From NCBI GenBank assembly GCA_018296165.2, contig JACKQL020000181.1, positions 1 through 64,000 on the forward strand: 64,000 nt of DNA. The letters run 5' to 3'. This document shows positions 1 through 41,703 of this stretch, in pieces; the stretch's first letter is position 1; each line of letters starts with the position of its first letter. Source of the stretch: Termitomyces sp. T153. Its lineage: Eukaryota > Basidiomycota > Agaricomycetes > Agaricales > Lyophyllaceae. The translations under genes were made by a program, and so were the position numbers. The notes under the pieces are model-generated. The model searched no databases. It was not told the origin of the DNA and saw only the letters and a program-made list of their open reading frames with translations.

Positions 1-970
1 GACGGGGGCTCAGTACACTGGTGAGTCCTTACTAGGCGGATGCGATGTCCTGCGTTTATAACCAGGCGCCCGGAGTTGGAGCGGAGGTGGGGAAAGCTTG
101 CGAGGGGTCCCTAGGGATAGCGGCCCGAGTAAGTCCTGAGTGATTCAGAGGGGTCTAAGACCAGAGGTACTGGTCGCTGACCCAGGGCGGGTGTCAGAGC
201 TAGTTAGTGGGCGCACAAGGAGATTGCGGGGTAGGCGGAGGCTTCTCGGCTGTTGGGGGGCGGGGTTGGGTTGGACAGGGGATTACCGGGGCTTGGTGGG
301 TTCCGGGGCCGAGCGGGTAGCAAGGTCCAGAGTTGTCGTTAAGAATGTTCAGGTTGTGGCGCGTGCGCGGAGTTCGTACTGACGTAGGGAGCAAGGGAAC
401 TTCAGAGGAACAAAGGAAATATGTACAGTCGAGACGAGATGGAGACGAGACGAGACTAAGAAAAGATAGATTCGAAACCTAGAAACAGAAATACAGACGA
501 GACGAGAGACGAGACATAGGATCCCGGTAAAATGTAATATCAAGACTAAAGTTCGAGGAGTTATTCTATGGCTTATATACCGACTACTGGGTGCCTCCGA
601 GGCAGCGGATATGATGGCGGGGGTCGACAGAGCTGTACTGAGTCAACGGGTGTCAGGTACAACCCAAGGTCGGGCCGCAGCTGTATTCTGATGGGATCAG
701 TTGGGGGCGCGGCCGCCCCGGGGACGTCGTGACACTCCGGGACAGGTCGGGTAAACTAGGGTAGGGGGTCGGGGACGTATGACATGGCCAGGAACGGTGG
801 GGGAAGGTTTCAAGGGGGTGTTGATGGGAGTTGCCGTCGGGGTTTGCCGGAGGAGCGTCGGAGTTGTCCAGTGTGGGCGTCGAAAGTGTGGGCGGGGTCC
901 CGGGGAGTTAAGCGGGAAATCGGGAGGGGTTGGGAGCAGTGTCTAGGGAGCTAGGGAGCAGGTTGTGACA
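1..970 (-). repeat. 3' LTR of E1 (17 bp cut off by window start)
   Basis: It aligns without gaps to 9426-10395. There are 18 differences, all transitions, 17 of them CpG versus TpG or CpA. On the minus strand it begins TGTCACAACC at 970. It contains a TATATAA at 573-579 and the AGTCTTGATATTA tract at 535-547, both read on the minus strand. Confidence 0.95.
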
Positions 971-983
971 TCACCCCCCCTTC
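971..983 (-). other. Polypurine tract of E1
   Basis: On the minus strand a GAAGGGGGGGTGA run directly abuts the 3' LTR start. E2 (before 18635) and E6 (before 40262) have the same kind of run at the same place. In the family this is the RNase H-resistant primer for plus-strand DNA synthesis. Confidence 0.8.
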
Positions 984-1183
984 AGCGTCGAGACCCTCGA
1001 GACGCGGGGAGTGGGTCGGGGACCGGTAGGGTGTGGGAATCGAAGTTGATCAATATTGATCAAACCGCAGCGAGCGGCGGCGGCGTGGGGAAGGAAGTCA
1101 AGGTGCGGCCGCCGTTCGTCAGGGGCCCCTTCTTAACTTATTAAAAGGGGTGGACGCACCCAGGAGTCCGCCAGCTTGTTGCA

Positions 1184-2879
1184 ATGTCTTCTTCAGCTTA
1201 TTCTCCCACAGCATCTAGGTCACTGTCCCTGCCTTCCCAGCTGTTGTCCTCCGAAGATTTGGAGGGTCGCCGAGATCGCCATCGGGTCGAGGCAATGTAC
1301 CGTAGTCGTGAGTGTGGCCCGTTGCATGTACCCCAGGACACTGATCGTCCCTTCGCAGAGTTGTCTGCGGCCGTGGCTGGTCCCTCGGGGCCACCGTCTG
1401 GTGTGGATGCGATGCAGCCCCCGGCGGGCGTGGTCACTTCTACGCGTTCCAAGTCTGGCATTCACCCGGGGGTGGTCCAGCTTGTCCCAGAGGATTCGAG
1501 GGTGGTCCAGGTGGAGGTGACGCCGGAGCAGTTCGCCGAGGCGGTGGGTCGGGCGAGGGGTCCCCCCACCCTCGAGTGGTGTCAGGCGGCGGCTCCGGTG
1601 AGTGGTCACTTAGCTTCATGTCTCCCGGACTAACATGCCCCTGCAGTGTGCGTCTTGTACCCGACGAGGGGAGCAGTGTGAGTTTGAGGAACCGGCATCG
1701 GGGGTACGGTGGGACACGTCGGTGTGCCTTCCGTGCCATTTGCGGCACGAGAAGTGCTCCGTCACCCTGAGTTGGCAGGCTGTTTGCGTCGCGGCGGAGC
1801 AAGGGTGGGACCAGGATTGGGTCGCAGCACAGCTGGAGGAAGGACGGAAGGGCAAGGTGTTGGGGAGGGGCTCCGGGGCTGGGGAAGGGGAACGGGTCAG
1901 CGCGCCTGTCATGAAGGTGGGCCCTCCGCAGGGTGGACGGAAGGAGGGGGCCCCTTCCAGGCAGGAGAAAGGGAAACGGAGGGCGTCCCCTTCACCCGAG
2001 GCGGGTCCCAGTAAGCAGGCGTGGGGCGAGCAGGTGATGGGGGGCCCCCCTGGTTCCGCAGTGTATTCCCCTACGTCCGGAGCCCCTGTTGAGCAGTCTG
2101 CGGACAGGTTGTGGTCAGTTGCGGAGGCCTATCTGTGGCGTCGGGTAGAGGGCTTGGAACGGTTGTTGGTCGCACGCGAGGAGGAGATTCAGGGGGTACG
2201 GGAGGAGAGGGATGGGGCTCGACGGGAGTTGGACGGGGTTTGGAGGGAGCGGGACCTGGCACGGAAAGACAAGGACGTCGCCGTCGGGACTGCCGTGGAG
2301 CGATTGTCTCGTCTGCAGGAGTTGGAGGTGCGGACAGTGCATTTGCAGGCGCGGGTGGAGGCGGCAGAGGTGGCGACACAGCAGGCAGGAGGCTCAGGGG
2401 TGTGGGAGACTCAGCAGGGTTCCAGCGCTGGGGAAGTCCGGGCGGCGGCGGAGAGGGCGCGGCGGCGGGAAGAGTGGCTCACTAACGAGGCGGCCTCGGG
2501 CCAGCGAGGAGTGCTTCGTGAGTGGTCTTCCCGCTTTCTTCTCCTAAGCGCTGATTTGGGTTCCACAGACTGGGCCCGGGAGCATCACATCCTTCTCGAC
2601 GGAGCATCGGCAGCGCTGGGGTCCATCCATGATGGGTTGGCAAGGATGCCCGGGGACCTTCTGCCGGAGTTGGGTCAAGGGGTTACGCAGATGGGGCGCC
2701 TGTTGGCAGGGCATCGGCGGAGGGCAATGGCAGACCCCGGGGCGTGGTGGGAGATAGCGACGGACGTGGGGGAACCGCTCCCCGGGCAACCCGAGGTCCT
2801 GGCGGCGGTAGTGGCACAGTTGGAGGTGTTCATGGTGGGAAGGGTAGCGGGGTTGGGGTCAGAGGAGGAGGGAGAGTGA
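1184..2879 (+). CDS. Opposite-strand Zn(II)2Cys6-like / coiled-coil gene carried by E1
   Basis: A two-exon gene on the plus strand, convergent with pol and lying between the chromodomain and the 3' LTR. Exons are 1184-1597 and 1647-2879; the 49-nt intron starts GTGAGT, has a CTAAC branch-like site and ends TGCAG, and the join is in frame for 548 residues. Exon 2 opens with six cysteines at about 139, 142, 149, 165, 168 and 175 (C-x2-C-x6-C-x15-C-x2-C-x6-C), the spacing of a fungal Zn(II)2Cys6 cluster except for a long middle loop. Residues 290-385 are charged, heptad-like and probably coiled coil; the tail is acidic. E2, E6 and a fragment at 41255 keep the gene and the intron position. DNA binding is inference only; the role in the element is unknown. 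The ATG matches the start of the E6 copy. Confidence 0.75.
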
Positions 2880-3029: not shown

Positions 3030-4618
3030 GTAGGAGAGTATTGGTGGGAGTTGAATCCCTGGTGAACCCAGAGGCGGGGGTTACGCCCACTATTGCCATC
3101 TGTGTTGGGTCAGTCCCGGGGGTTCTGGGGCTTGGCGGGATTCCGTTGGTGGAAGTCCTGGAGTTTGTTGGGGGCCCTGTCAAGGTTCTTTCGGGGTTCT
3201 CATGTATCGTCCTCAGGTCCGTAGCCCTTCCAGCGGACCAAGTACTGGAGTCGGCCGCGAACTACCCGGGAGTCAAGGATCTTGTCGACCTCGTAGTGAT
3301 ACTCGTCCTCGACTTCGACGGGGGGCGGTCAGCTGGGGCATTGGCCGGGGAAGGGGTCTGGAGCGTGCCTTTCAAGGAGTCGAACGTGGAACACAGGGTG
3401 GAGGCCCTTCAGACCCAGAGGCAGGTCAAGCTTGTAAGCGTGGGTGGAGACCTTCCGGAGGATCTTGAATGGGCCGAGGCGTTTGTGGTCGAGTTTGATA
3501 GAAGGCCTCCGGGTCTTAAGATTTCGTTGGTCGAGCCAGACCAAGGTGCCGGGGGGCCAGTCGGGGGTCGGCTGGCGACAGGTGTCGGCGTGCTTGGAGT
3601 AGGCTTGGTTGGCAGTGTCGATCTCGTCCCAGAGGAATTGGTGGAGGGATCGGAGGTCCTCGGCGACTTTGTGGGCCACGTGGGAGGGGATGTCCTTGAG
3701 GGACAGCGTGAGTCAGGGATTGTAGCCCTTGTTGGCGTAAAAGGGGGAAACTCCGGTGGCAGAGTGAGGCGTGTTGTTGTAGGTGAATTCGGTGAGGGGG
3801 AGCTCCGCGCGCCAGTTGTTCTGTAAATAGTTAACGTAGAGGCGAAGATACTGTTCTAACATCTGGTTTATGCACTCAGTTTGCCCGTCGGTTTCCGGGT
3901 GGTAGGCGACAGAGAGGCTGGTTTTGATCTCAAGTGCCTTGCACAGCGATTGCCAGAAATGAGATACGAATAGGGGTCCACGGTTGGAGACAATGTCGTC
4001 GGGGAGTCCATGTTTGGAGAATACATGTTCTAGAAATAGTTTGGCGAAATCCGGGGCGGTGTCAGTGGTGTGGCAGGGAATAAAGAGGGCTTGCTTGGTA
4101 AGGCGGCAGACGACGACGAGAATTGCGTCGAAACCTTTGGAGTCGGGGAGTTCAACGATATGATCCATCGATATTGAAGACCAGGGGCAGCGACCGACGG
4201 GGAGGGGTTTCAGTAATCCGTGGGGGCAATGGCGGGGGACTTTAGCCCGTAGGCAGGGCTCACAGGCCCTCACGTATCGCGTGATGTCCTTCTTCATTCC
4301 TGGCCAAAAATAAGTCCGGGAGATGAGTTGAAGGGTCTTACGAATTCCTGGGTGCCCCCGGAGTTTGTGATCGTGGTGCTGCCGGAGTATGTCAAGGCAA
4401 ATGGACTTGTGGTCCGGGGCGTAGATTCGTCCACTTCGGAGCAGCAGGCGGTGGTCCGGGGATAGCGAAAAGGGGTTGTCTACGCTCGACTTGTCGGGGT
4501 TGTTGCGGGGGTCGTGCTGGTTGAAGAAGGGGTCCGGGGGTGAATTCCTGATTTGCTGGAGGATTCCTTCTTCGTTTAAAATCAGCACGGCATGTAGATG
4601 TTCGGGTGGGATTACCAC
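3030..4618 (-). pseudogene. E1 integrase with C-terminal chromodomain (stops)
   Basis: It holds an HHCC zinc-binding N-terminus, then a DDE core with the first Asp in an SMDHI context and the Glu in HPETDGQTE. The second Asp reads Asn (VSNRG, codon near 3985), so the catalytic triad is incomplete. The GPF/GLY-like region and a chromodomain (about 3280-3060) follow. In-frame TGA codons occur at 3713, near 3326 and inside the chromodomain, where E2 has Trp in the WKL/WEP motif. Chromodomains of this group direct integration to modified histones. E2 shares the first two TGA positions; they most simply derive from CGA arginine codons. Confidence 0.9.
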
Positions 4619-5501
4619 TCAATGGTTGAATGCATTTCGTTCGGTTTCGAACGATTTCTTCAGATACATGTCGGGTCTCCGAGTGAGGGCGTCGGGCTTT
4701 GCGCTGAGTCGCCCGGGGCGGTAGTGAATGGTAAAGTCGTACTCCAAAAGGGTTTCGGACCATCGAGCCTGGCGGCGGCTGAGCTGTTTTGTGGTCGTGA
4801 AGTATTGCAGGTTGTTGTGATCGGAGTAGACTTGGATGCGGTGTGGGGACCCTTCGAGGTAGGCCTGCCACTGACGAAAGGCTTCGACGATCGTGAGGAG
4901 TTCCTTGTCATAAATGTCGTAGTTGAGTTCCGCTGGGATCATCGATCGGGTGTAGAAGGCGACGGGGCGGAGATCCTTGCCCTCCGAGTTCGACTGGGAG
5001 AGTATCCCAGCAATAGCGTAGTCGGAGGCGTCACATTCGAGCACGATGGGTAGGGAGGGGTCGAAATGGCGGAGGACCGGAGCGGAGGTGAAGGCCTTCT
5101 TCAGGAGGAGGAATACGCCCTGGCACTTGCTGTCCCAATCCCAAGGGGTGTCCTTCCTTGTGAGCCGGTTGAGGGGTTTGGTGATTCCGGAGTAGTTGTC
5201 GATGAAGTGGCGATAGAAGTTAGCAAACCCCAAGAATGACTGTACCTCTTTGACGTTCCGCGGGGAGGGCCAGTTGAGTATCACGTCGACCTTAGCGGGG
5301 TCCATGCGCACACTGTCGGGGGTGACGATGACCCCGAGATATTCGACTTCCGCTGTGTGGAATGAGCACTTTTCAGGTTTAGCATGAAGGTGATACTCTC
5401 GGAGTCGTTCCAGGACACGGCGGACGTGCTCCAAATGCTCCGCCGGCGAGTTCGAGTAGATCAGGATATCGTCCAAATACACGATGACAAAGACGTTGGG
5501 A
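4619..5501 (-). pseudogene. E1 RT C-terminal half and RNase H
   Basis: It begins at the RT catalytic motif YLDDILIYS (intact here, unlike in E2-E4), continues through the thumb (FLGFANFYR) and a complete Ty3-type RNase H with the conserved ECDASD, YDKELL and YSDHNNL stretches. It ends at a TGA at 4619 where E2 has CAA, which fits an ancestral CGA mutated on opposite strands. The upstream RT fingers and palm are missing because of the deletion ending at about 5501. Confidence 0.9.
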
Positions 5502-6868
5502 GCTCAATTTTGGACATGTTGTAGATCTTGCCAAACGGGGGTGAGGTGCCTTCTTTGAGGTCGATCTGGTGGTCGTAGGAGCGGTGCGGAGGGAGTTCCT
5601 TGGCACTTCCTTTGGAGAACACGTCAGCGAACTTATGATACTCCGGGGGAACTACTTCGGATAGGATCTGTTCCTCTGTCTTCTTTTCTGGCGTGGTAGT
5701 CCCTGCGCGGAGGTATTCCTCCGGTAGGGCCAGAGTGACTTGCAACTGGAAGGTGGGGGTGCCTTCTCGTAGGAGGCATGCGAAGGGGACGGCGCCGATG
5801 ATTTTAATGTCGAGGTTTCCGGAGTCAACGGGGCTGGGTCCCGTAGGTGTAGCAGTCGGATCCGGGGTGGCGTCGGGGTCCGGGATAGGCTGGAAGCAGA
5901 GGTGGATGGTGGCTGCTAAGCTCGCTTCGGGGCCGGGGAATTGCATGGTAAGGTTCTTCCAATTGATGTCGGGGTTGACGTCTCGCAGCCATGGGAGTCT
6001 GAGCACGATTGGGGTCGACGGGGGTAGTTGGGTAACAAGGAGTCGGGCCTGGAACTGCAGGTCATTATCGAGGGTGAGGGTGTTGTCGTGGTACTGCATG
6101 ATTCTTGTTGTGGCGGGGCTCCCATCGAAGAGTTGGAGCTCGAGGAGTTTGTCGAGGTTGTTGCGTTGGAGGTTGAGTTGGTTGCTGACAAAGACACCAG
6201 AGGCGCCGCTGTCTACAAGGGCGGGAAGTACCTTGAGCGAGCCGCCAAGTCGGACATAGATGACGAATGATTGCGCAGACCTAGAGCGAAGTTGCGGCGG
6301 GGTCTGGGGTTGGTTGATCGTGGCCTCGGAGCTCTCGGAGAGGGGTGGGACATGGAAGGGTACCAGTCCAGAATCGGCGGGGTTGTCCTGGTCGAGGCGT
6401 AGGGTGAGACTGGGCCAATCGACGCGGGGATTGGTGGAGCGGAGCCATGAGAACCCTAAGACGACGGGGGCGGAGGGGTGTAATTTTGTGACGAGTAGCC
6501 GGAGTTCTTGCTGTTGTCCGTCGGCGAAGGTCAGGGTCGTTTCTAGGCAATGAGTGATGTCTCCCGCTGGGGTAGAGTCTCCGTCAAAGAGTTTGAGGGG
6601 GATCGGGGCGGGAAGACGGTGGAGGGGTTGTGGGGCGAGCGCTGCCAGGGATTCGTCAACAAAGTTATTGGTGGCACCGCTGTCGACTAGTGTGGGGACA
6701 GGTTTGTCGGTGAAGGGGAGAGTGGTGCAGAGGAGGAGGTTTGTGGAGGAGTGGGAGGGGAGGTGTGCTGGGGGGTTGTCCGGGGCAAGCATCATTGCAC
6801 GGAGAAGTGTGGCTGGGGCAGAGAAGACGTTGGGATGTGGTCCGCGGTCTAGTGCGTCTTCCAGACCT
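5461..6868 (-). CDS. E1 pol start: two tandem retropepsin domains, then truncated RT
   Basis: The frame opens right after the gag TAG at 6867, in the -1 frame relative to gag; the first ATG is at 6795. Numbering from that ATG, domain 1 has LVDSGATN at 36-43 and a VVLGFSWLR motif near 112. Domain 2 has LVDSGASG at about 193-200 and IVLRLPWLR near 266. Each thus has its own catalytic Asp and its own hydrophobic-Gly-type second motif, about 157 residues apart. The KFADVF linker and the RT entry ([10 protein letters not shown]) follow, then the reading runs across the RT deletion out of frame to a stop at 5461. Retropepsins normally work as homodimers; two fused copies could fold as one pseudo-dimer. 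E2 has the same tandem pair. Confidence 0.85.
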
Positions 6869-8045
6869 AAACCGCCGACTCGTTTTCCGTGAACTGGTAG
6901 TTACAGTCTTCTCTGTCGATCGTCCACACGGTGCGTCCCATCACCTGTTGTTTAGGGCAACTGCAAATAAAATGTCCCTGCTCACCACATAGGATGCACG
7001 TGCCCTCCTTCCGTCGTTTCTCCTGCGTTTCTTCTGGCACGTCAATCCACTGACTGTCCTGGATCCTGTTTGCGCATAGGGCTTCCTGATCGTTGGCAGG
7101 GTCTGGGATGTCGTTGCGATCGTCGGGGTTGGTATCCGGAGGTACTGGGGTGTCGTGGAGGTTGGCGGCGTTGAGCTGGGCGAGTGGTCGCTGCCCCGGG
7201 GGCCGATTAGCGTTGGGGACTCCTCGGCCCGGGGGGAAGCGGGGTGCAGGGTTAGCAGGGTTAGCGGGGATGGAGGATCGGATGCCATTGGTTGCTCCGG
7301 CCTGCCAGTTGGTGTTACCAGAGGTGTTCCATGAGGTCCGGGGCGCCGTGTTTTCACTGCGATCTTCCCAATAACGTTGGTCGACCTGGGTAACGAGCGC
7401 CTTGTACCTGTCGTAGGTGGTTTGTTTGGGCGCGAGGTGAAGGACGTCCTTGATCTGTTGGTGCAGGGCACGACGGAGGGCGAACCGGAGGGCGTTGTAA
7501 TTCCAGCCGGTCTCGTAGGCCTCTCGTTTGAATCGTACGATGAAGGTCGTGAAGTGTTCGTTGTCGCGCATTCGGAGGTTGAAGAGATTTTCCTCCGCCT
7601 CTGCTATGGTGTCAAAGACGCCAAACTTACTCGAGAACTCTTGAGTGAAAGCAAGCCAATGGGAGAGTACGGGATTGTTTGGGTCGAACCGGAGTAGCGC
7701 GGTGTAGTGGTCGAAGGCGATGCCCTGTAAGTATGATGCGGCGAAGGCCACTCATGAGCTCTCAAGCTGAAAAGTGATGGGCTTAGCTTGAAACATAGTT
7801 AAACACTGGGTCAGGAAGATTCGCCACTTCCAGGGGTCGCGGCCGGTGAAGGGTTTGGGCTTCTGGATGTCGAGCTTTCCTTCCTGGGCCAGTGCGTCGT
7901 GGGTATTGTCCTGCGAATTTTGAGTTTGAGGTGGGGGTCCGGCGTTGTAGTAGTAGTAGTAGTTGTTTCCGTTTCCGCGCTGGGGGGGAAAGTTGTCCAT
8001 CGCCGGGCCCCATCCTTCCGGGGGTCCGCCATTGGGTGGTCCCCC
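6867..8045 (-). pseudogene. E1 gag: capsid-like region and zinc knuckle
   Basis: It carries a capsid-like retrotransposon gag region (helical, with an F-V-x-FKREAYETGW stretch) and a CCHC zinc knuckle, CILCGEQGHFICSC, near 6980. It is interrupted by a TGA at 7752 just before an AFAASYLQG motif typical of gag, and separated from the N-terminal gag ORF by a one-base frameshift near 8062. It ends at a TAG at 6867 that E2 also has. It packages element RNA in cytoplasmic particles in known families. Confidence 0.85.
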
Positions 8046-9408: not shown

Positions 9409-10395
9409 TGTCAGGTTCTGCTGACGACGGGGGCTCAGTACACTGGCGAGTCCTTACTAGGCGGACGTGATGTCCTGCGTTTATAACCAGGTGCCCGGAG
9501 TTGGAGCGGAGGTGGGGAAAGCTTGCGAGGGGTCCCTAGGGATAGCGGCCCGAGTAAGTCCTGAGTGATTCAGAGGGGTCTAAGACCAGAGGTACTGGTC
9601 GCTGACCCAGGGCGGGTGTCAGAGCTAGTTAGTGGGCGCACAAGGAGATTGCGGGGTAGGCGGAGGCTTCTCGGCTGTTGGGGGGCGGGGTTGGGTTGGA
9701 CAGGGGATTACTGGGGCTTGGTGGGTTCCGGGGCCGAGCGGGTAGCGAGGTCCGGAGTTGTCGTTAAGAATGTTCAGGTCGTGGCGCGTGCGCGGAGTTC
9801 GTACTGACGTAGGGAGCAAGGGAACTTCAGAGGAACAAAGGAAATATGTACAGTCGAGACGAGACGGAGACGAGACGAGACTAAGAAAAGATAGATTCGA
9901 AACCTAGAAACAGAAATACAGACGAGACGAGAGACGAGACATAGGATCCCGGTAAAATGTAATATCAAGACTAAAGTTCGAGGAGTTATTCTATGGCTTA
10001 TATACCGACTACTGGGTGCCTCCGAGGCAGCGGATATGATGGCGGGGGTCGACGGAGCTGTACTGAGTCGACAGGTGTCAGGTACAACCCAAGGTCGGGC
10101 CGCAGCTGTATTCTGATGGGATCAGTTGGGGGCGCGGCCGCCCCGGGGATGTCGTGACACTCTGGGACAGGTCGGGTAAACTAGGGTAGGGGGTCGGGGA
10201 CGTATGACGTGGCCAGGAACGGTGGGGGAAGGTTTCAAGGGGGTGTTGATGGGAGTTGCCGTCGGGGTTTGCCGGAGGAGCGTCGGAGTTGTCCAGTGTG
10301 GGCGTCGAAAGTGTGGGCGGGGTCCCGGGGAGTTAAGCGGGAAATTGGGAGGGGTTGGGAGCAGTGTCTAGAGAGCTAGGGAGCGGGTTGTGACA
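9409..10395 (-). repeat. 5' LTR of E1, full length 987 bp
   Basis: Bounded by TGTCACAACC..CCTGACA on the minus strand. It carries the element promoter (TATA at 9998-10004) and GACGAGACGAGA-type short repeats downstream of the predicted start. The 970 bp shared with the left LTR are about 98.1 percent identical. Confidence 0.95.
9960..10004 (-). promoter_or_regulatory. E1 core promoter: TATA box and predicted transcript start
   Basis: TATATAA at 9998-10004 and, 32 nt downstream, the AGTCTTGATATTA tract (9972 down to 9960) predicted to be the mRNA 5' end. The same spacing of 32-33 nt recurs in the E5 LTR (61627 to 61659) and the LTR-like unit at 16957-16990. Confidence 0.75.
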
Positions 10396-11727
10396 ACTAC
10401 CAGTTTATAGAAAACAAGTCAGTGGTTTAGGTCTTAAAGATGCACTAGACCATGGATCAGACACTGATGTCTTCTCTGCTCTGGCTGCACTCCTCCATGC
10501 AACAGTACTCTCCCCAGACAACCTCCCCTCCCACACCTCCTATACTCTCTTCCTCTACACCACCCTCCCATTCTCTGCCAACTCTATCCACACTCTAGTT
10601 AACAGCAGCACCACCAACAACTTCATCAACAAATCCTTGGCAGCACTTGCTCTCCAACACCTCTGACATCTCCCCACTCCAATGCTCCTCAAGTTCTTCA
10701 ATGGCAATCTCACTTCTACTGGAGACATCATGCACTGCATGGAGATGACCATGACATTTGCCAACAGACAATACTAGGACCTCCAATTAGTAGTCACCAA
10801 ACTACACATCTCTACCCCCATTGTCCTAGGTTTCTCATGGCTCCACTCCACCAATTCCCACATTGACTGGCCCAGTCTCTGCCTTAACTGGGATAGCCTG
10901 AACAACTCTGGACCAGTCCCTTTTGATGTCTCATCCCCCTCTAAAAACTCTGAAGGTACAACTGAAGCCCCTCAGACTCCCTTGCAGCTCTGCTTGAAGT
11001 CCATGCAATTGTTCATCATCAATGTCTGGCTCTCCAATAGTCCTCTCTGCCCTTATTGACAGCAGAGCCTCTAGCACCTTCATCAGCAACCAGCTCAATT
11101 TCTGCCACAATAACCTCAACAAATCCCTCAAGCTCCAGCTCTTTGATAGAAGCCCCACCTCAACCAGAATCACTCAATACCATAACAATGCCCTCATTCT
11201 TGATGACAATTCAAGGTTCTAGGTCCAGCTTCTTGTCACTTAACTCCCCCCATCAACTCCAATTGTGGTTGGACTCCTGTGGTTGCAGGATGTCAACCCC
11301 AACATCAATTGGAAGGACCTCACCATGCAATTCCTTGGCCCCCAAGCAAGCTTAGCAGCCACCATTCCCCTCCACATCCAGTCCACTTTGGACTCCAACA
11401 TCCCCAACCTCAATGCCAGCACCTCTGAAGCAACCCAAAGCCCCTCAACCCTCAAGGATGACCAAGGAAGGGAAGAAAACACACTTCTGCCCTGATCCCC
11501 CTTGAACAAAATCCAACAGCTCCCCCTCAACATCCCCTAAAATTGATACAAAGACCTGTGATACCCCAACTAACAATGCCAGACTCCTCCAGACAACTCT
11601 GTCACAACTTGCTGCTGCTCCATCACCTATCCCCATCAATCCTGAAGCCCTTGACATCAAAATCATTGGTGCCATCCCCTTCACATGCATTCTACAAGAT
11701 GGTACCCCTGCCTTCCAACTACAAATC
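10396..11727 (+). pseudogene. E2 gag end and tandem protease region
   Basis: Residual gag end with the same TAG as E1 near 10430, then pol in the -1 frame. Protease domain 1 near 10595 reads NSS in place of DSG; domain 2 near 11056 reads IDSRAS. Both are at the positions of E1's two DSG sites, so the double-protease design predates E1. Frames are broken by several stops and shifts. Confidence 0.85.
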
Positions 11728-13344
11728 ATGCCAGCCCTACCAGAAGAATACCTCCACACAAAAACCACTCTGCTGGAACAAAAAATAGAGGAACAAATCC
11801 TAAACAAAGTAGTTTCCCTGGAATATCATGAATTTGCTGATGTATTCTCTGAAGGGACTGCAAAAGAACTTCCCCCACCCTACTCCTACAATTACAAAAT
11901 TGACCTTGAAGAAGGTACCTCACTCCCATTTGGCAAAATTTACAACATGTCTGAGATCAAACTCTGGGCTCTAAAGGATTACCTTAATGATATGCTTGGC
12001 AAAGGTTTCATATGCCCATCAATCTCCACCACCAGTGCTCTGGTCCTGTTTGCCAAGAAGGATGGGTCTCTCCAACTCTGTGTTGATTATCAAGGACTCA
12101 GCAAAGTCACCAAAAAGAACCAGTATCCCTTCCTCTTGATTGGAGACCTTGTTGACTGCCTCTGCAGTGCCAAGATTTACACAAAAATAGACCTTCACTC
12201 TAGCTACAACAACATCCAGATTGCCCTGGGGCATGAATGGAAGACCACCTTTCACACCCACTATAGCCTCTTTGAGTATCTAGTGATGCTCTTTGGAATG
12301 ACTAACTCCTCCACCACTTTCCAGTACTTCATGAACAATATCTTTTATGACATGAATGACATCTTTGTTATTGTGTACTTGGACAACATTCTGATCTACT
12401 CAAATTCATTGGAGGAACATCTGGAGCATGTCCACCATATCCTAGAATGACTCTGAGAATACCACCTTCACACTACACCTGAGAAATGCTCCTTCCACAC
12501 AATGAAGATCAAATATTTCAGAGTTATTGTTATTGTTACTCCCAATGGCATACACATGGACCCAGCCAAGGCTGAAGCCATCCTCAACTGCCCTCTGCCC
12601 TGGAATGTCAAGGAGGTACAGTTTTTTTTGGGGTTTGCTAACTTTTATCACCAATTCATTGACAACTACTCCAGAATCACCAAACCTCTCAATTAACTTA
12701 TGTGGAAGGACACCTCTTGGGACTGGGACAGCAAGTGCCAAAGTGTGTTCACCCTCCTCAAAAAGGCCTCAACCTCTGCTCTGATCCTCCACCATTTTGA
12801 CCCCTTCCTACCAATCATGCTTGAATGCAATGCCTCCAACTATACCATTGCCAGAATACTCTTCCAATTGGACTCCAGAGGAAAGGATCTCTGCCCCATC
12901 ACCTTCTACACCTGCTCAATGATCCCTGCAGAGCTCAACTATGACATCTACAACAAAGGACTCCTCACCATTGTTGAAGCCTTCCACCAGTGGAGGGCCT
13001 ACTTTGAGAGATCTCCACACCACATTCAAGTCTACTCTGACCATAACAACTTACAATACTTCATGACCATAAAGCAGCTCAGCTGCCACCAAGCTTGTTG
13101 GTCCAAAACCCTCTTGTTGTATGACTTCACCATCCACTATTGCCCCAAACAACTTGGTGCAAAGCCCAATGCCCTTACCCAGAGGCCTGATGTGTACTCA
13201 AAGAAGTCATTTGAGGCTGAGTGGAATGTGTTCAACCATCAAGTGGAAATCCCCCCTGAGCATTTGCATGCCATGCTGATTATGAATGAAGAAGGAATCT
13301 TCCACCAAATTAGAAATGCACCTCTGGACTCTTTTTTCACTTAG
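11728..13344 (+). pseudogene. E2 reverse transcriptase and RNase H
   Basis: It contains the complete RT: the FGKIYNMS entry, FAKKDGSLQLCVDY, KIDLHSSYN, an LFGMTNSSTTFQ palm stretch and YLDNILIYS, where the second catalytic Asp is Asn. The thumb and an RNase H with YSDHNNL follow, with a TGA at 12448 and a TAA at about 12694. The YLDN change comes from loss of the CpG that spans GAC-GAC. The 12360 region aligns directly to the E1 deletion junction. Confidence 0.9.
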
Positions 13345-14760
13345 TATGACCCCCACAACAACACTGTCAATGAGTCAGCCACTGACAACCCTTTCATGCT
13401 ATTTCCAGACCACCACCTCCTACTCTGGAGTGAATGCATCTATGCTCTAGACCACAAGTCCATTTGCTTCAACATACTCTGGCAGCATCATGACTACAAA
13501 CTCCAGAGGCACCCTGCAATTTGTAAGACTCTCCAACTTATTTCCAGGACTTACCTTTGGCCAGGAATGAAGAAGGACATCACACAATATGTAAGGGCCT
13601 GCAAACCATGTCTCCAGGCCAAAGTATCCTGCCACCATCCTTACAGCCTGCTGAAATCCCTCTCTGTTGGCCAATGCCCTTGGTCCTCAATATCAATAAA
13701 CCACATTGTCAAACTCCCCCACTCCAAAGGCTTTGATGCAATACTCATAGTTGTCTGCCACCTCACCAAAAAAGCCCCCTTCATCCCCTGCCATACCACT
13801 GACAATGCCCCATAGTTTGCCAAGCTATTCTTCAAACATGTCTTCTCCAAACACAGACTTCCAGACAACATTGTCTCTGACTACAGCCCTCTCTTTGTCC
13901 CCCACTTTTGGCAGTCACCTCTGCAAAGCCCTCAAGATTAAGACCAACCTATCAACTGCCTATCATCTGGAGACTAACAGACAAACAGAACAAGTAAACC
14001 AGACCTTGGAACAGTATCTCCACCTCTCCATTAACTATTTACAGAACAACTGGCATGCAGAACTTCCTCTCGCTGAGTTTACTACAACAACACACCTCAC
14101 TCCACCACTGGAGTTTTCCCTTTCTATGCCAACAAAGGCTATAACCCCTGACTCACTTTATCCCTCAAGGATATTCCCTCCTATGTGGCCCACAAAGTTG
14201 CAAAGAACCTCCACTCCCTCCACCAGTTCCTCCAGGATGAAATCAACACCACCAATTGAGCCTACTCCAAACATACCAATGCTTGACACAACCCCACTTC
14301 CAACTGGTCCCCCAGCACTCTGGTCTGGCTCAATTGATAAAATCTCAAGACTCAGAGGCCCTCCATCAAGCTCAATCACAAGCAACTTAGCCCCTTCAAG
14401 ATCCTCTGGAAGGTCTTGACATATGCCTACAAACTCAACCTACTCCTAGGCCTGAGGGGCCTCCACTCCATCTTTCATGTCTGCCTCCTTGAAAAACATG
14501 CCCCAGACCCCTTCCCTGGACAATGCCCCAGTTGACTGCCCCCCATTAAGGTCAAAGATGAATATCACTATGAGGTCAATTAAATCCTTGACTCCTGCTT
14601 GGTCCACAGTAGACCCCACTACCTGGTCTATTAAAAGGGCTATAGACCCAAGGACAACACTTGGAAGCTCTGCAAGAACCTCACCAGAGCCCCTGCCATG
14701 CTCCAGAACTTCCATCAATGGCATCCCAACAAGCCCTGGGACCCCTGAGACTAGTGAATA
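13345..14760 (+). pseudogene. E2 integrase and chromodomain
   Basis: HHCC region near 13490-13620, DDE core with IVSDYS retaining the second Asp that E1 lost, then a degenerate tail. The chromodomain (about 14545-14720) keeps the tryptophan in the TWKL motif. Stops include TGA codons at the same two linker positions as in E1. Confidence 0.88.
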
Positions 14761-16641
14761 CAGACAGCATTAGTGGGCATAACCCCTGCCTCCAGATTGA
14801 TTAGGGATTCAACTCCTGCAAGTGATCCCCTGTGTGTTTTCATTTTCTCATCCTCCTTACACAAATCTGAAAAGTTAATTAATCAGGACAGAAGTTCAAG
14901 AAAATTGTATGGACAAACTACAAACTACATGATGTTACAAAAAGAAGAAATATGAATGGCACTGACATAGGAAGGACAAGAGAACAAGGTCCAGGGTCCC
15001 CCCCTACTCCCCCCCTTCCTCTGGAGCAGGCCCCACTACTCTCCCCACCAAGTCTACCTCCATCTGAGCCACAACCATGGCCAGGATTTCTGGGTACTCT
15101 GGAAGAGGCTCCTCCATATCCATGGCCAACTCCCACCACAGCCTAGGCTCCACCATGTTCCTCTGTCTATGGCCCACCAGCAACCTCCTCATTCAATCCA
15201 TGCCCTGCCCTAACTCTATAGAGTGATTCCCTGGCATTTATGCCAGCCCATTCTGAATTGATGTGAATGTGGCTGAGGTTCTGTCAAGCAGAATTCTGTG
15301 CTCACAAATCCAGTCTATGGGAATATATCAGTAGGGCTAGAGCAGAGATGGGGGGGAAACTCACATATAACTCCTCTTTGCTCTGAGACTGCCTTATTGG
15401 CAAGCCACTCCTCTTGTCTCTGGACAACCTCCAATGCCACAGAAGACACCCTGGCCTCCAGAGCACCCTGCCTTGCCCTTGCCTCCTGCCCTGCCTATGC
15501 CCCCTGGTCCAGTCACTTCCACAGCTCCTGTACCTCCAGCAACTGCTCTGTGGCCATCCACAGGGTGATCACTTGATCTCTCTATACCACATCTTAATCC
15601 CTCCACACCCCATCTTGCTCTCTCTGCATCTTGTCCCAGTCCTCCTCCTTGCAGGTTGCTAGCAACTTCTGCTATTGCTCTATCTGACAATGCAGAAGCA
15701 CCTCAGAGACTGACCAGAATGTCTCCACAGACTATCCTACTGGGGTCTCCAACTCAGGAGAGTACAACTGGGGGCCAGGCAGCCCCACCATCTAACTCTC
15801 ACCTCAGACCCTCTTGCTGGGCCCCACTTCCAGTGACAGGAATGCCCTCCATTTCCCCTTATTGTGCAATGCCTGAACTTCCTCTCTCTGCCCACCCTAC
15901 AGAGGCCCACCCTACTACAGAGGCCCACCTTCATCATGGACTGCCCCCCACTTCCCCCACCCTCCACTCCAGACCTCCAGCTTGACACTCTACCCTTGTG
16001 CTTCTTGCCCATCTGCTCTGCAATCCATGCCAAGTCTCACTCTTGCTCTGCCAACATGCAGGCTGCATGCCAGCTCAACAAGATCAAGCACTTCTCATGC
16101 CATGCTCAACAAAGAAGATATACTGACATGTCATAACAGGAGCCTAGTGCTAGTGCCTCAAACTCACACCTCTTCTCATGATGAGCACAGAGGGTGCACT
16201 ACACAAACAATCTGCTGGAACATAGAAAAGAGCCCACCAACCTAATGGAGCTTCCTCCTGATACCACTCAAGGGTCAGGAGACCCCACACCTGCCCCATC
16301 ACCTCTGTGAACTTTTCCAGAGTCATGTCCACCTATGCTATAGTACTAGGTTAGAGTAATACTGATAGTTCTGGGGCTTTCTTGAAGACTTAGGCAGTCT
16401 ACTCTAATTCCACACTGATGTCTTGATAAATGCTTGAAGTTGAAGGGGTTTACTTCCAAAATATTTCTATTCTGAATGCAGAGGTGTCATGACCCATTCC
16501 ATTCCCCCTTCCCTTCACCATTATCCAACCTCAGATTCTACACAGTCCCTCTCTAGATCTCAGCCACACCCCCAGATCTTAGCCACAGTCCTGTTTCAGC
16601 CACATCCAGGTTTTAGCCACCTCTAGGACCGCTTTTCCTGT

Positions 16642-16855
16642 TCCAGATCATTCCCACAGGCACAGATCACTTCCACAGGTTCCAGATCACTTCCACAGGT
16701 TCCAGATCACTTCCACAGATTCCAGATCACTTCCACAGGTTCCAGATCACTTCCACAGGTTCCAGATCACTTCCACAGGTTCCAGATCACTTCCACCCAT
16801 TCCAGATCACTTCCACCCATTCCAGATCACTTCCACCTGTTCAAGATCACTTCCA
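16642..16855 (+). repeat. 20-bp minisatellite in the LTR-like unit
   Basis: About ten near-identical copies of TTCCAGATCACTTCCACAGG in direct tandem, the last few diverging to CCCAT and CTGTT ends. It lies about 100-300 bp upstream of the TATA box at 16957, that is, in the U3 position. Confidence 0.9.
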
Positions 16856-17459
16856 GGATTGCTTCCCTTGTTCCAGATTGCTTTCTCATGACTTAGATCA
16901 CTTCCTGTTATGACTTAGATCACTTCCATCTTCTCCTTTTGGCAGTGTCCTACAGCTATATAAGGTCCCTTAGTCTGTAGCTACACCCCAGCCTTGACAT
17001 TACCTGATATCTTGTTTGTGTTCTATTGTTATCTGATCTTCTCTCCATTCATTACTCGCTCTCATTTCTTAGTTTCTTAGTTTCTTTCCCTATTTACATA
17101 CTTGCTGTTGGCATCACCTCCCTAAGGTGGTTTTGGCTCCTGTAAGAGTCCTCCTCCAGGACTGTGGTCCTGACAAGAGGGGTCTCAACAAACTCCAGTC
17201 TAAGTGATTCACTCCCTGGGAACCACCGAGCCTTTGCCTATTAATTGCCTGTCCATTTGCTACTCTACTTGGGCTATTTATACCTCTTTCTACAGTGCAC
17301 AGACCACCCCCTACATGTGACTTTTGGTTCCATACTTTCCAGCCCCTTATTCATAACTGTTATTCTAATTCCCCCTTTTGGCATGCCTGTTTCAGTGCCA
17401 CAGGCCAGTTCCTGGTTCCATCATTCCTCCTTTGCATTCTTAGCTTCCATTTGCCCCAT

Positions 17460-22559: not shown

Positions 22560-23950
22560 AGTGGTACAATGAGTTCCAAGACATTGTCAATGGAACAAAG
22601 AAAGAACTTCCTTCTTGGTAAGAAGTGGATCATGAGATAAATCTCATTGATGAGACCAAACAGTACTCAGACTTCATACCAAGGTGTCCCAAATCACTTC
22701 AGCAGCAATTGCAGGATAAAATTGACTGCTATGTGTGGGCTAAGTGGTGGGAACCATGTGTGGCCAATCAGGCTGCACCACTATTATGCATTCCTAAGAA
22801 GGATGGATCCCTGTGGATAACATTAAATGCATGTCAGCATAATGACAATACTGTTAAGGATGTAATGCTCTTACTAGACCAGGAAGTCATTAGGGAGGAT
22901 GTTGCTCATGCACCAGTGAGGTCAAGAATTGACCTCACCAATGTGTATGAGCAAGTGAGGATACATATATTGGACATACCTAAGTCTGCATTTATGACCA
23001 TTATTGGAATGTATTGCAGTAATATCATGCAGATTGGCAACTGTAATGTGCCAGCCACATTCCAACATCTGATGATGTCCATCTTTAGGGACATCATCAG
23101 CAAGTGGATGCATGTGTACTTAGACAATATATTGTCTTTTCAGATTCCATTGAGGAGCACAAGCAGCACCTCAGAGTAGTCTTTGAAAGACTATGCAAAA
23201 ACAAGCTCTACCTCAAATAGAAGAAGTGCAAGCTATATGCTGAGTGCATAGAATGTCTCAGCCATATAATTGACTTGCAGGGTATACATGCTGATATGAA
23301 GAAGTTGAATAGGATCCAGGAGTGGTGCACTCCCAAAACCTATAACAACATCCAATGGTTTGTCAGATTGGTGAACTACATCAGGAAATTTCTGTCTGAT
23401 GTTTCTGCATACACTGGGCAATTAATGGCCATGACACAGAACAGGTTGCCATTTCACTGGTGACCTATTCACCACTGGTGCTTTGACATAATCAAGAGAA
23501 TCTGTGCCAAAACTCCAGTAATACACCCAATTGATCCTTGATACAAGGATCCCATCTGGCTGATCTGTGATGCCTCAAAGACAAGCATTGGAGTGATGTA
23601 TGGACAAGGTCCAAGCTGGCAGAAATGTTAGCCAGCTGAATTCATGTCTAAAGAATTCACCAATGCACAGTAAAATTATGCTGTGCATGAGCTAGAAACC
23701 TTGGCTATCCTAGAAGCCCTCCTCAAGTGGGAGGATAAGCTTCTGGAGTACAAGATCCATGTGAGAATGGATTATAAGGCTCTTGAGTTCTTCAATACTC
23801 AACAGAATTTGTCATCACATCAATGACAGTGGACAGACTATATGTCAAGGTTCAATTTTGACATCACATATGTAAAAGGAGAGCTCAATAAGGTAGTGGA
23901 CTGTTTATCCCACTACTTTGAGAGTGACTCTCCTCAAGATATGCAGATGC
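22560..23950 (+). pseudogene. E3 reverse transcriptase and RNase H
   Basis: RT motifs in order: PLLCIPKKDGSLW, SRIDLTNVYEQVRI, a degraded palm helix and MHVYLDNI, with the second Asp as Asn. Then a thumb (FVRLVNYIRKFL), an RNase H start (ICDASK) and an AVHELETLAILEALLKWED stretch. Stop codons are scattered, mostly TGA and TAG. Confidence 0.85.
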
Positions 23951-38133: not shown

Positions 38134-38278
38134 TTTATCCCCTCATACAATTTAAAACTCAATTAATCAGGGTAGAGGTCCAAAAAATGTCATATAGGCA
38201 TGCTACAAATACAGAATGTTACAAATTTATGAGGCACCAACACAAGAAGAACAAGAAAACTATGAAGACCAACCCCCT

Positions 38279-40045
38279 CTACTCATCCTCCTCCTCTGGA
38301 GCAGGCCCTGCTTCCCTCCCCACCAAGTCCACCTCCATCTGGGTCACAACTATGGCCAGAGTCTTTGGGTACTCCAGAAGAGGCTCTCCCATATCTGTGG
38401 CCAACTCCTACCATGATCTGGGCACCACATTCCTGCACCTGTGGCCTGCCAGCAGCTCCCCATTTGACCCATGCCCTGCCCCAACTCTGTGGGATGATCC
38501 CCTGGCATCCATGCCCGCCTGTCCTGAATCAATGCAAATGTGGCTAAGGCCCTATTGAGCAGAATCCTGTGCTTGTAAATCCAGTCTGCAAGAACATGTC
38601 AGTAGGGCCAGAGCAGAAAGGAGGCAAACTCATGCATAACACCTCTCTTCCCTGAGGCTGCCTTATTGGCAAGCCACTCCTCTTGCTTCTGCACAGCCTC
38701 AAACACCACAGGGGACACCTCAGCCTCAGGAGTGCCCTGCCTTGCCTCCACCCCCTGCCCTACCCATGCCTCCTCCTGGCCTAGTAGCTCCTATAGTCCC
38801 TGCACCTCCAATGACCTCTCCATGGCCATCTGCAGAGTGATCTCCTGATCCCTCTGTGCTGCATCTCTATCCCTCTATGCCACATCTTGCTCTCTCTATG
38901 CTGCATCTCTGTCTCTCCATGCCACATCTTGCTCCCTCTGTGCTGCATCTCTGTCCCTCCATGCCACATCTTGCTCCCTCTGCATCTTGTCCTGGTCCTC
39001 CCTAATCCTCCAGATCTCCTCCTTACAGGTTGCCAGCAACCCCTGCAACCCCTCTACCTGACAATGCAGGAGCACCTTGGAGACTGACTAGGGCACTTCT
39101 ACAGACTACCCCATGGGGGCCTCTAATCCAGGAGAGTACACCTGGGGGCCCAATAGACCTGCCATTGACCCCTTGCCTTAAGCCCTCTTGCTAGGGCTGG
39201 CCTCTGGTAGCAGAGACACCCTCCACTTCCCCTTGTTGCATGATGCCTGAGACCCCTCTCTCCACCCACTCTGTAGAGGCCCCATCTTCATTGCAGACCA
39301 CCCCCACTTCCTCCACCCTTTACTCTGGACCCCTGGCCTGACACCCAACCCCTGCACCCCTCACTCATCTGCTCTGCAACCCACATCAAGTCCCACCCCT
39401 GCTCTGCTAACACACAGGCTGCATGCCAGCTTAACAAAGTAGGGCACTTCTTATACCATGCCTAACGGGGAAGACACACCGACATGTCATGACAGGAGCC
39501 TGACACCAGCACCTCAAACTTGCATCTCTCCCCACATCAAGTGCAGAGGGCTCACTACTCAAACAATCAGCCAGAGCACAGAAGAAAGTCCACTGACCTA
39601 CCAGAGCCTCCTCCTGACACCACTCAAGGGTTGGAGGACCCTGTGCTTGCCCCAACCCCTCTGCAAATTCCTTTGGAATCATGTCTGCCTGCACAACACA
39701 CAACAACTCCAGAACTACCATTACTACCTCCAGCTCAAAGTTTGGCCTGGAAGAACACACCAGAGCTGACTATGTCAAACCCCCACTTCAAGACAGAACC
39801 CAGAAGTACCCACCACTGCTATGGATAGCTCTGTCAAAGCTCAATCAGCAACTCCAGAACTCAAGAAAGTTGGACTTATGACTGCAATACATTGACTGCA
39901 CCTTCTTGCAATCCTGCCAATGATTGTACTCTGCATGGCAGCCCTTGTACTCAGCTCACACATCAATGCAATTCTTGTTAGAAAGTGGGGGAGTCAGGGA
40001 TGCAACTGACAATGATGCTGCTGAAGGGGAGGCAGAGGAAGACAT
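38279..40045 (-). pseudogene. E6 copy of the opposite-strand cluster/coiled-coil gene
   Basis: Start ATG at 40045 (MSSSASPS, like the E1 start) and stop at 38279 after an acidic tail (PEEEDE). Exon 1 ends near 39600; the intron reads GTAGGT..GAGTAG; the cluster region follows with four of six cysteines still legible. The coiled-coil part carries a 42-bp tandem expansion. Several stops, one of them replacing the first cysteine. Confidence 0.8.
38870..38992 (-). repeat. 42-bp tandem repeat inside the coiled-coil region
   Basis: Three copies of a 42-bp unit. In the gene frame each encodes a 14-residue block of the form QREQDVAWRDRDAA, i.e. two heptads, so repeat gain or loss keeps both frame and heptad phase. 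Confidence 0.8.
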
Positions 40046-40261
40046 GGAAGAAAAGTTTTAGGAACCCTGGAGTATGTCTGATCCTTTTTAATTGATTGGG
40101 AGGAACTCCCTGACAAATGGTGGCCATGCTTCAACTTCATTCTCTACACTGCTGCTGCTGCTGCAGTTTGATCAATATTGCTTACACTTCAATTCCTACA
40201 CCCCCACTAATCCCTGACTCATACTCTGTGCCTTGAGGGCCTTGACACTGAAGGGGGGTGA

Positions 40262-41254: not shown

Positions 41255-41703
41255 CTTAAATAGCGCCAAGCAGAGGCTCTGGTAGACCAGTGAATCCTTT
41301 ACCATGTTCTGACTGACTGTTTGCTCAGTGCACCCTCTATGCTTAATGCAGGAAGCAGTATAAATTTGAGGCACTGGTACAAAGTTTTTGCTGGGACATG
41401 TTAGTGTGTCTCTCCTGCTGAACAAGACACAAGAAGTGTTCTGTCTCATTGGTGGCATATGGACTACATTGCTACAAAGCAAGGATGGGACCAGGACTGG
41501 GTGGTGGCACAGTTGGGTGAGGAGTGGAGGGGTAAGGTGTCAGGTTGGGGATCCAGAGTGGATCATAGGAGAAGTGCGGGGCAGCTGGCAGTGAAGGTTG
41601 GACCCCCATAGAGTGGATAGAGAGAAGGAGCCCCAGCAGCATGCAACAAAGGCAACTGGAGGGCTTTTCCATTGCCAGAGGCAGAACCTAGCAAGACCTT
41701 ATC
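41255..41703 (+). pseudogene. Fragment of a fourth copy of the cluster/coiled-coil gene (E7)
   Basis: Plus strand, so from an element oriented opposite to E6. It carries the end of exon 1 (CTCTG), an intron GTAGAC..GCTCAG and the cysteine-cluster start of exon 2 (TGCACCCTCTATGC), then matches E1 1640-2020 up to a proline/serine-rich stretch. Homology and CpG depletion both end at about 41703, where host sequence begins. Confidence 0.75.

What the first reader, a model, noticed from the sequence alone, without database searches (positions are those of the whole stretch)
1184..2879. A spliced Zn(II)2Cys6-like / coiled-coil gene on the opposite strand of an LTR retrotransposon
Between chromodomain and 3' LTR, convergent to pol, E1 has a 548-residue two-exon gene. 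The intron (GTGAGT..TGCAG, CTAAC branch-like site) can be kept because the element's genomic RNA is the other strand. The six-cysteine spacing followed by a coiled coil is the layout of Gal4-type regulators. The gene recurs in E2, E6 and at 41255. A retroelement-borne regulator of its own LTR or of host genes is a testable inference.
Basis: partly seen in the sequence, partly recalled or inferred. Interest (0 to 1): 0.9.

Follow-up and report, generated by a model that had tools for sequence, protein, structure and literature searches.

The report
Mushroom retrotransposon's hidden antisense nuclear gene
A jumping element found in about a hundred copies in the genome of what is likely a termite-farmed mushroom carries on its opposite strand a gene with three predicted introns, which selection has preserved only somewhat less strictly than the element's own copying enzymes; its protein, with eight conserved cysteines and a predicted coiled coil, would enter the nucleus and likely tunes the element's own expression.

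Summary
The gene is real, but its structure differs from the finding. In a Ty3/Gypsy element (3' LTR 1-970, 5' LTR 9426-10395) a plus-strand gene lies between pol and the 3' LTR. The best model has four exons (514 aa), not two (548 aa): two further 51-nt introns keep the frame and were missed. Across 48 full-length copies introns vary like four-fold sites while exons are constrained. Without CpG sites, shared changes are 21 nonsynonymous to 48 synonymous (46.8 nonsynonymous expected; omega about 0.21); in 21 copies pol gives 0.11, the gene 0.22. Listed reverse transcriptase hits within 7 kb are antisense in 86 of 86 cases. All 182 homologues found are Termitomyces. The protein has an eight-cysteine domain containing a Zn2Cys6-like hexad, which scores below Pfam's Zn_clus cut-off with its halves in swapped order, then a bipartite basic stretch, a predicted coiled coil and a helical tail. 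Antisense accessory genes at this place are known in plants and Botrytis (brtn): this is a new variant. Regulation of its own LTR is inferred; there is no RNA or binding evidence.

The parts
1..970 (-). 3' LTR of element E1 (cut off by the contig start); pol runs on the minus strand
   Evidence: 98.1% identical over 970 nt to 9426-10395
971..983 (-). purine tract next to the 3' LTR (polypurine-tract-like)
   Evidence: read from sequence; near-invariant in 49 copies
1046..1063 (.). perfect 18-nt palindrome TTGATCAATATTGATCAA, ending 120 nt before the ATG; candidate site, function unknown
   Evidence: exact in 46 of 49 copies, one mismatch in 3; 167 sites with at most 1 mismatch in the genome, 0 for the reversed control; only the right half kept in two older copies
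1105..1112 (.). GCGGCCGC upstream of the gene; the same 8-mer is in both LTRs (709-716, 10134-10141); candidate cis site (post hoc)
   Evidence: 3 sites in E1, none elsewhere in the window; 0.21 expected for one LTR plus the internal region, P(>=2)=0.023; 9-mer GCGGCCGCC upstream in 44 of 49 copies, but in the LTR of only 1 of 49; the 8-mer in the LTR of 39 of 49
1140..1146 (+). ATTAAAA, TATA-like, 37 nt before the ATG
   Evidence: present in the two older window copies; promoter role inferred
1184..1307 (+). exon 1
   Evidence: GTGAGT 43/48 (ATGAGT in 5), AG 48/48; 15 of 39 non-CpG sites variable
1359..1597 (+). exon 2
   Evidence: GTGAGT..GCAG in 48 of 48 copies; 12 of 45 non-CpG sites variable
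1647..2517 (+). exon 3
   Evidence: GTGAGT 44/48 (others GTAAGT 1, ATGAGT 3), AG 48/48; 16 of 42 non-CpG sites variable
2569..2879 (+). exon 4 with stop codon
1544..1835 (+). eight-cysteine domain W-C-x5-C-x2-C-x6-C-x15-C-x2-C-x6-C-x9-C (aa 104-184; split by intron B)
   Evidence: all eight Cys in 42 of 45 near-complete homologous domains
1968..2024 (+). bipartite basic (NLS-like) stretch, aa 229-247 (second half altered in this copy)
   Evidence: strict pattern in 39 of 182 homologues vs 3 of 3640 shuffles; 30 of 48 copies
2088..2390 (+). predicted long coiled-coil helix, aa 269-369
   Evidence: AlphaFold on homologue P0001, block pLDDT 68-93 over residues 271-370
2424..2849 (+). predicted helical C-terminal region (aa 381-505, across intron C)
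3203..3292 (-). chromodomain-like stretch at the end of pol (stop after it in this copy)
   Evidence: read by eye from the translation, motif recalled
3716..4618 (-). integrase
   Evidence: Integrase_H2C2 6e-23
4622..5482 (-). reverse transcriptase / RNase H
   Evidence: RT_RNaseH 2.2e-34, RVT_1 3e-12
5464..6795 (-). protease region
   Evidence: Asp_protease_2 2e-8
6870..7751 (-). gag
   Evidence: Retrotrans_gag 4.2e-8
9426..10395 (-). 5' LTR
14534..16334 (-). older copy of the gene next to a second pol (on + at 10397-14529): antisense, convergent
38274..40258 (-). older decayed copy of gene plus upstream region beside an LTR remnant

Best explanation
This is an accessory gene of a Ty3/Gypsy retrotransposon, lying antisense between pol and the 3' LTR, with three predicted introns and a coding frame under purifying selection, whose protein, with eight conserved cysteines and a predicted coiled coil, likely works as a nuclear DNA-binding regulator of the element. 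Shown: place, orientation, linkage with pol, conserved splice signals, intron-like and exon-like variation, selection on the protein, homologues in five other Termitomyces isolates and the conserved cysteine spacing. Predicted: splicing itself, the coiled coil, nuclear entry and zinc binding. Inferred mechanism: a promoter next to the 3' LTR makes an mRNA opposite to the genomic RNA; because the genomic RNA is the other strand, these splice sites do not exist on it and reverse transcription carries the introns on; the protein would dimerise through the coiled coil, bind DNA through the cysteine domain (candidate site GCGGCCGC, found in the LTR and in the gene's own upstream region) and hold down or tune LTR transcription, in the way HBZ does for HTLV-1.
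For: Linkage: 86 of 102 gene hits have a listed RT hit within 7 kb downstream, 86 of 86 on the opposite strand, most often 2975 nt from the start of exon 3 (from the truncated lists). Selection: 48 copies, non-CpG changes shared by two or more copies 21N:48S vs 46.8 N expected, omega about 0.21, none of 20,000 simulations as low; exons 1+2 alone 1N:7S, P=0.003; CpG sites neutral (174N:100S, omega 0.98). Same 21 copies: gene 18N:39S (0.22), pol from RT to the integrase end 13N:52S (0.11). Two of four fetched copies of the next-nearest group differ in exon length by 6 and 9 nt, in frame. Structure: non-CpG variable sites 43/126 in introns, 181/1150 in exons (Fisher P=1.8e-6), 58/196 at four-fold sites; splice ends kept; 514 aa equals annotated P0001. 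Homologues: 182 proteins in three searches, all Termitomyces, P0001 and P0111 34% identical, with the eight cysteines in 42 of 45 near-complete domains. Architecture: basic stretch, coiled coil. HBZ comparison: passages of PMC10186651.
Against: No transcript, binding or localisation data. Zn_clus is below Pfam's cut-off in E1 and in P0001, P0088 and P0103, and absent from P0107, P0111 and P0113. Introns A and C are multiples of three and nearly stop-free in these copies (0 and 1 stops), so retention is possible; by my patterns 9 annotated homologues read through A (14 skip it) and 22 do not show the intron-C junction (36 do), the rest of 117 not classable. In two older copies intron C is 52 nt while exon 3 is also frame-shifted, so their unspliced frame is net in register. 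A minus-strand frame also shows mild apparent constraint (omega 0.75, P=0.014), explained here by shared wobble positions. One of 49 full-length copies (L003) has a 1-nt insertion, and 15 of 48 have one to three stops in the four-exon frame. The 18-nt palindrome is only half kept in older copies. The GCGGCCGC idea is post hoc and its longer 9-mer form is in the LTR of the window's copy alone (1 of 49). The cysteine domain is poorly modelled for P0001 (block pLDDT 36-42) and moderately for P0111 (62-87 over residues 51-140).
Confidence: 0.55

Rival explanations
1. The protein is a nuclear accessory factor that acts on the element's DNA or particle (targeting of integration, nuclear import of the pre-integration complex, or binding of the cDNA) and not on transcription.
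For: Basic stretch and predicted coiled coil; constraint within a factor of two of that of pol; nuclear antisense proteins of unknown role are known in plant elements (passages of PMC7264820).
Against: The chromodomain-like end of pol could already serve targeting (by eye); the Gal4-like order of modules favours a transcription role. No direct evidence decides.
Confidence: 0.22
2. The protein counters host silencing (small RNA, cytosine methylation), protecting a high-copy element from the CpG mutation process that decays its copies.
For: Copies carry a heavy load of neutral CpG changes (274 shared biallelic CpG sites), so host methylation of the element is plausible; convergent transcription would make double-stranded RNA (inference).
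Against: The Pfam scans show no domain that I know as a silencing suppressor (one search lists 25 of 61 families); CpG decay goes on in spite of the gene.
Confidence: 0.13
3. The antisense RNA itself is the functional product and the frame is incidental.
For: Antisense RNAs are proposed regulators in other elements (passages of PMC7264820).
Against: Codon-level selection (omega about 0.21) and an eight-cysteine domain held between lineages 34-48% identical.
Confidence: 0.03
4. A host Zn-cluster gene caught once by the element, a passenger with no role for it.
For: Introns in an antisense insert look like a captured genomic gene; Zn_clus is the commonest weak Pfam match (21 of 81 members at E<=1).
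Against: Constraint while the element replicates; present in several lineages of the genus. A host paralogue outside transposons was not looked for separately.
Confidence: 0.05

Closest known systems
Antisense additional ORFs between pol and 3' LTR (aORF-3R): Grande gene23, RIRE2, Retand (TRP28), PvRetro13
   Same: Same place and orientation in LTR retrotransposons, kept in most copies, nuclear or DNA-binding role suggested (passages of PMC7264820, and its section 5; passages of PMC11963269)
   Different: Plants, other domains; the word 'intron' occurs in neither main text; no TRP28 match in E1
brtn of Boty-like elements (Botrytis cinerea; Zhao et al. 2011, known here only through citing papers)
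   Same: Additional antisense gene of a fungal LTR retrotransposon
   Different: Sequence not available to me; homology, introns and domain not compared
HBZ / APH proteins of HTLV-1 to -4
   Same: Antisense, from the 3' LTR side, spliced; HBZ is nuclear, lowers 5' LTR transcription and has a bZIP (passages of PMC10186651)
   Different: No bZIP match in E1, cysteine domain instead; three short predicted introns inside the coding region; a transposon of a fungus
Fungal Zn2Cys6 regulators (Pfam PF00172, Gal4 type)
   Same: Two C-x2-C-x6-C triplets, then basic linker and coiled coil (order recalled for Gal4)
   Different: Loop of 15, triplets match the profile in swapped order, two extra conserved Cys, score below the cut-off

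Membership tests
Zn(2)-Cys(6) binuclear cluster (PF00172) | Score at or above Pfam's curated cut-off (21 bits) | tested here: not met
   E1 19.2 bits, E 0.0013; P0001 11.1, P0088 10.3, P0103 17.1; P0107, P0111 and P0113 no Zn_clus hit
Zn(2)-Cys(6) binuclear cluster (PF00172) | Six cysteines as C-x2-C-x6-C, loop, C-x2-C-x6-C | tested here: met
   41 of 117 homologues, loop always 15; 0 of 5850 shuffles. The usual loop of 5-12 is recalled, not taken from a call; by that rule 15 is too long
Zn(2)-Cys(6) binuclear cluster (PF00172) | First and second triplet match the profile in order | tested here: not met
   Best stretches: first triplet to profile 13-35 in E1, 13-33 in P0088, 13-32 in P0103; second triplet to 2-14 in P0001. 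All weak matches
Zn(2)-Cys(6) binuclear cluster (PF00172) | Fold of the cluster | tested here: inconclusive
   Foldseek found nothing at E<=0.001; rows cover the helical part; the cysteine domain was not folded alone
Zn(2)-Cys(6) binuclear cluster (PF00172) | Binds two zinc ions and CGG-type DNA sites | not testable with these tools
   needs protein
Ty3/Gypsy chromodomain retrotransposon | gag, protease, RT/RNase H, integrase in order between LTRs | tested here: met
   Pfam matches and LTR pair; rve core just below its cut-off (31.4 vs 32.6). Chromodomain by eye only
aORF-3R (antisense additional ORF, pol to 3' LTR) | Between pol and 3' LTR, antisense | tested here: met
aORF-3R (antisense additional ORF, pol to 3' LTR) | Conserved in most copies like other element proteins | tested here: met
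   omega 0.22 vs 0.11 for pol in 21 copies; 86 of 136 listed RT hits have a listed gene hit (lists are truncated)
Retand TRP28 (PF04195) | TRP28 domain | tested here: not met
   only Zn_clus reported for E1 at E<=10
Boty brtn | Sequence homology to BRTN | not tested
   no BRTN sequence at hand
HBZ-type antisense regulator | bZIP domain | tested here: not met
   no bZIP match for E1; bZIP_Maf weakly (best E 0.076) in 2 of 81 homologues
HBZ-type antisense regulator | Antisense transcription and splicing from the 3' LTR side | not testable with these tools
   signals conserved, no RNA data

The most novel reading that the evidence does not exclude
Mushroom retrotransposons have evolved their own HBZ: a multi-intron antisense gene that keeps its introns because they are invisible on the genomic RNA, encoding a nuclear factor of a new eight-cysteine class (halves of a fungal zinc cluster in swapped order) that recognises a site shared by the LTR and its own promoter and sets how fast the element multiplies; several lineages carrying it multiplied in the genus Termitomyces.
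Probability: 0.35. Interest if true: 0.82.

Novelty: new variant of a known kind. Interest (0 to 1): 0.62.

Why it matters
Antisense accessory genes of LTR retrotransposons have been described for years without a known function (PMC7264820, passages). Here is one with codon-level evidence of selection measured beside pol in the same copies, an intron structure that shows how such a gene could keep introns through retrotransposition, and a compact, testable cysteine domain. Genes annotated 'hypothetical protein' in Termitomyces (182 found) would mostly be explained as parts of the element and not as host genes. If the regulator role holds, it is a case outside retroviruses of an element steering its own LTR from the antisense strand.

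Tried and rejected

Rows dropped before counts: 58 loci gave 50 distinct copies; L010 (match begins at nt 215) and L003 (one extra base) were left out, leaving 48; sites with three or more bases were skipped. In one search only listed hits were used: 16 of 102 gene hits had no listed RT nearby, and 50 of 136 RT hits had no listed gene hit (9 of these have a listed palindrome site nearby); the one of these 50 fetched (C21:49622, L065) matches E1 only from 1937 on, that is, holds a cut gene. In one search, 45 of 127 aligned domains were near complete. One search counts the window's copy twice (50 rows for 49 copies).

Full report
What is there. The window is the first 64,000 bases of contig C181 of an unnamed 72.4 Mb genome. 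All 182 homologues of the gene found in three database searches come from Termitomyces, so the host is likely a Termitomyces or a close relative (inference). Element E1 is a Ty3/Gypsy retrotransposon read on the minus strand: 5' LTR 9426-10395, gag 6870-7751, protease, RT/RNase H and integrase down to about 3716 (Pfam matches), a chromodomain-like stretch near 3292-3203 recognised by eye, and the 3' LTR 1-970, cut by the contig start. The LTRs are 98.1% identical. E1's own pol frame is broken, while other copies show open frames of 1394 codons around RT.

The gene. On the plus strand between pol and the 3' LTR lies a gene from 1184 to 2879. Two further introns of 51 nt each, A (1308-1358) and C (2518-2568), do not shift the frame and were missed. 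Removing all three gives 514 aa, the length of the annotated J132_02857 (P0001). Over 48 full-length copies the splice ends are mostly kept: GTGAGT in 43, 48 and 44 of 48 for A, B and C, and AG in 48 of 48 for each; 8 of the 9 exceptions are ATGAGT. Outside CpG, 15 of 39, 12 of 45 and 16 of 42 intron sites vary, against 8/92, 24/173, 106/640 and 43/245 in exons 1-4. Pooled this is 43/126 against 181/1150 (Fisher P=1.8e-6), and 58/196 at four-fold degenerate sites: the introns vary about as much as the four-fold sites. Thirty-three of 48 copies have no stop in the four-exon frame, 15 have one to three.

Results against three introns. In these copies the unspliced frame meets almost no stops in introns A and C (0 and 1). 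By my patterns, 9 annotated homologues read through A (14 skip it) and 22 lack the intron-C junction (36 have it), out of 117, the rest not classable. In two older copies (L063, L064) intron C is 52 nt and exon 3 is also frame-shifted, so the unspliced frame is net in register. These were picked as long single-frame hits, which favours such cases, but isoforms that retain intron A or C cannot be excluded without RNA. Of the other four copies fetched with them, two have exon lengths 6 and 9 nt off, both in frame, and one has a stop.

Selection. Biallelic sites were classed without polarising them, and the null places the same change types in the same CpG class at random on the window's copy. 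Shared non-CpG changes: 21 nonsynonymous to 48 synonymous, 46.8 nonsynonymous expected, omega about 0.21, none of 20,000 simulations as low. Exons 1+2 alone: 1N:7S, P=0.003. Non-CpG singletons, mostly changes after insertion, are closer to neutral (62N:43S, omega 0.65, P=0.02). CpG changes are neutral (174N:100S shared, omega 0.98). In 21 copies where pol could be aligned (RT to the end of the integrase frame, 3331-5480), pol gives 13N:52S (omega 0.11) and the gene 18N:39S (0.22). So the protein has been kept by selection while the element replicated, about half as strictly as pol by this measure. In a first pass on the two-exon frame one minus-strand frame also gave omega 0.75 (P=0.014), as expected where wobble positions of two frames coincide.

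Linkage. Of 102 scored hits of the exon 3-4 frame in the genome (of 2,418 candidates), 86 have a listed RT hit (136 listed) within 7 kb downstream, all 86 on the opposite strand, most often 2,975 nt away. In the window, a second, older arrangement repeats this (pol 10397-14529 on +, gene 16334-14534 on -), and two further decayed copies lie at 40258-38274 and 41351-41695.

The protein. Homologues fall into several lineages: E1-like (J132, T112, Mn162 and this genome), P0088-like (T159_Od127), and P0103-like and P0111-like (both T32_za158). P0001 is 34% identical to P0111. They share W-C-x5-C-x2-C-x6-C-x15-C-x2-C-x6-C-x9-C, all eight cysteines in 42 of 45 near-complete domains. The inner six resemble a Zn2Cys6 cluster, and Zn_clus is the commonest weak Pfam match (21 of 81 members at E<=1). 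But E1 stays under the cut-off (19.2 of 21 bits), so do P0001, P0088 and P0103, and P0107, P0111 and P0113 have no Zn_clus hit. The first triplet matches the second half of the profile (13-35 in E1, 13-33 in P0088, 13-32 in P0103) and the second triplet the first half (2-14 in P0001); these are weak matches. It is therefore a cluster-like domain with halves apparently in swapped order and two more conserved cysteines, not a tested member of the family. A bipartite basic stretch follows (39 of 182 homologues, 3 of 3,640 shuffles; 30 of 48 copies), then a predicted coiled coil (P0001 269-369; P0111 228-298, block pLDDT 80-93 over residues 231-300) and a helical tail. Fold searches gave nothing at E<=0.001; the cysteine domain alone was not tested.

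Upstream DNA. A TATA-like ATTAAAA lies 37 nt before the ATG and is present in two older copies. A perfect 18-nt palindrome (1046-1063) is exact in 46 of 49 copies, and within one mismatch it occurs at 167 places genome-wide against 0 for the reversed control; of the first 50 listed, 33 lie 300-900 nt from a listed gene hit. Older copies keep only its right half. GCGGCCGC occurs three times in the window: in each LTR and starting 79 nt before the ATG. Upstream, the 9-mer GCGGCCGCC is in 44 of 49 copies, but in the LTR that 9-mer is in the window's copy alone (1 of 49); the 8-mer is in the LTR of 39 of 49 copies. This was noticed after the fact (P about 0.02) and is a lead only.

How it likely works. 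Transcription from a promoter beside the 3' LTR would make an mRNA opposite to the genomic RNA. Splice sites on that strand are meaningless on the genomic RNA, so the introns survive each round of reverse transcription; a sense-strand gene would tend to lose them (established logic of retrotransposition). The protein is predicted to enter the nucleus and dimerise, and likely binds DNA, acting on LTR transcription. Steps shown: place, orientation, linkage, selection, conserved signals and motif. Steps predicted or inferred: splicing, nuclear entry, zinc, DNA binding, regulation.

Known context. [quoted passage not shown] passages of PMC11963269; of PMC8365987; of PMC5987419). HTLV-1 HBZ is an antisense, nuclear bZIP factor with a spliced form that lowers 5' LTR transcription (passages of PMC10186651). 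The layout is thus a known kind; the intron-bearing gene, the eight-cysteine domain and the measured selection make this a new variant. That I know of no publication rests only on the ten searches named under Tried and rejected, in an open-licence library, and on the rows they listed.

Noticed in passing
window 1-970; contigs C10, C109, C112, C241, C289: On several contigs the gene starts near base 1,150-1,200, as in this window, so these contigs seem to begin inside this element's 3' LTR (by position; not checked by sequence): assembly breaks fall at this repeat.
   Followed up: no
window 1184-2879 and its 47 aligned copies: Strong CpG decay: 274 shared biallelic CpG sites in the coding region, neutral in codon pattern, as expected if the host methylates the element.
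   Followed up: partly
window 16623-16895: Tandem array of a 20-nt unit (CAGATCACTTCCACAGGTTC-like) just upstream of the gene copy of the second element.
   Followed up: no
window 1046-1063: Perfect 18-nt palindrome with 167 sites at up to one mismatch in the genome and none for the reversed control; 17 of the first 50 listed sites have no listed gene hit beside them.
   Followed up: partly
Termitomyces gene models P0001-P0182: Termitomyces genes annotated as hypothetical proteins are likely this transposon gene (their DNA context was not seen); models such as P0013 and P0014 seem to run on into the antisense of pol (by eye).
   Followed up: partly
window 23119-23910 and 32071-31274: Other LTR-element remnants with RT about 30-32% identical to E1; no match to this gene was reported beside them.
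   Followed up: no
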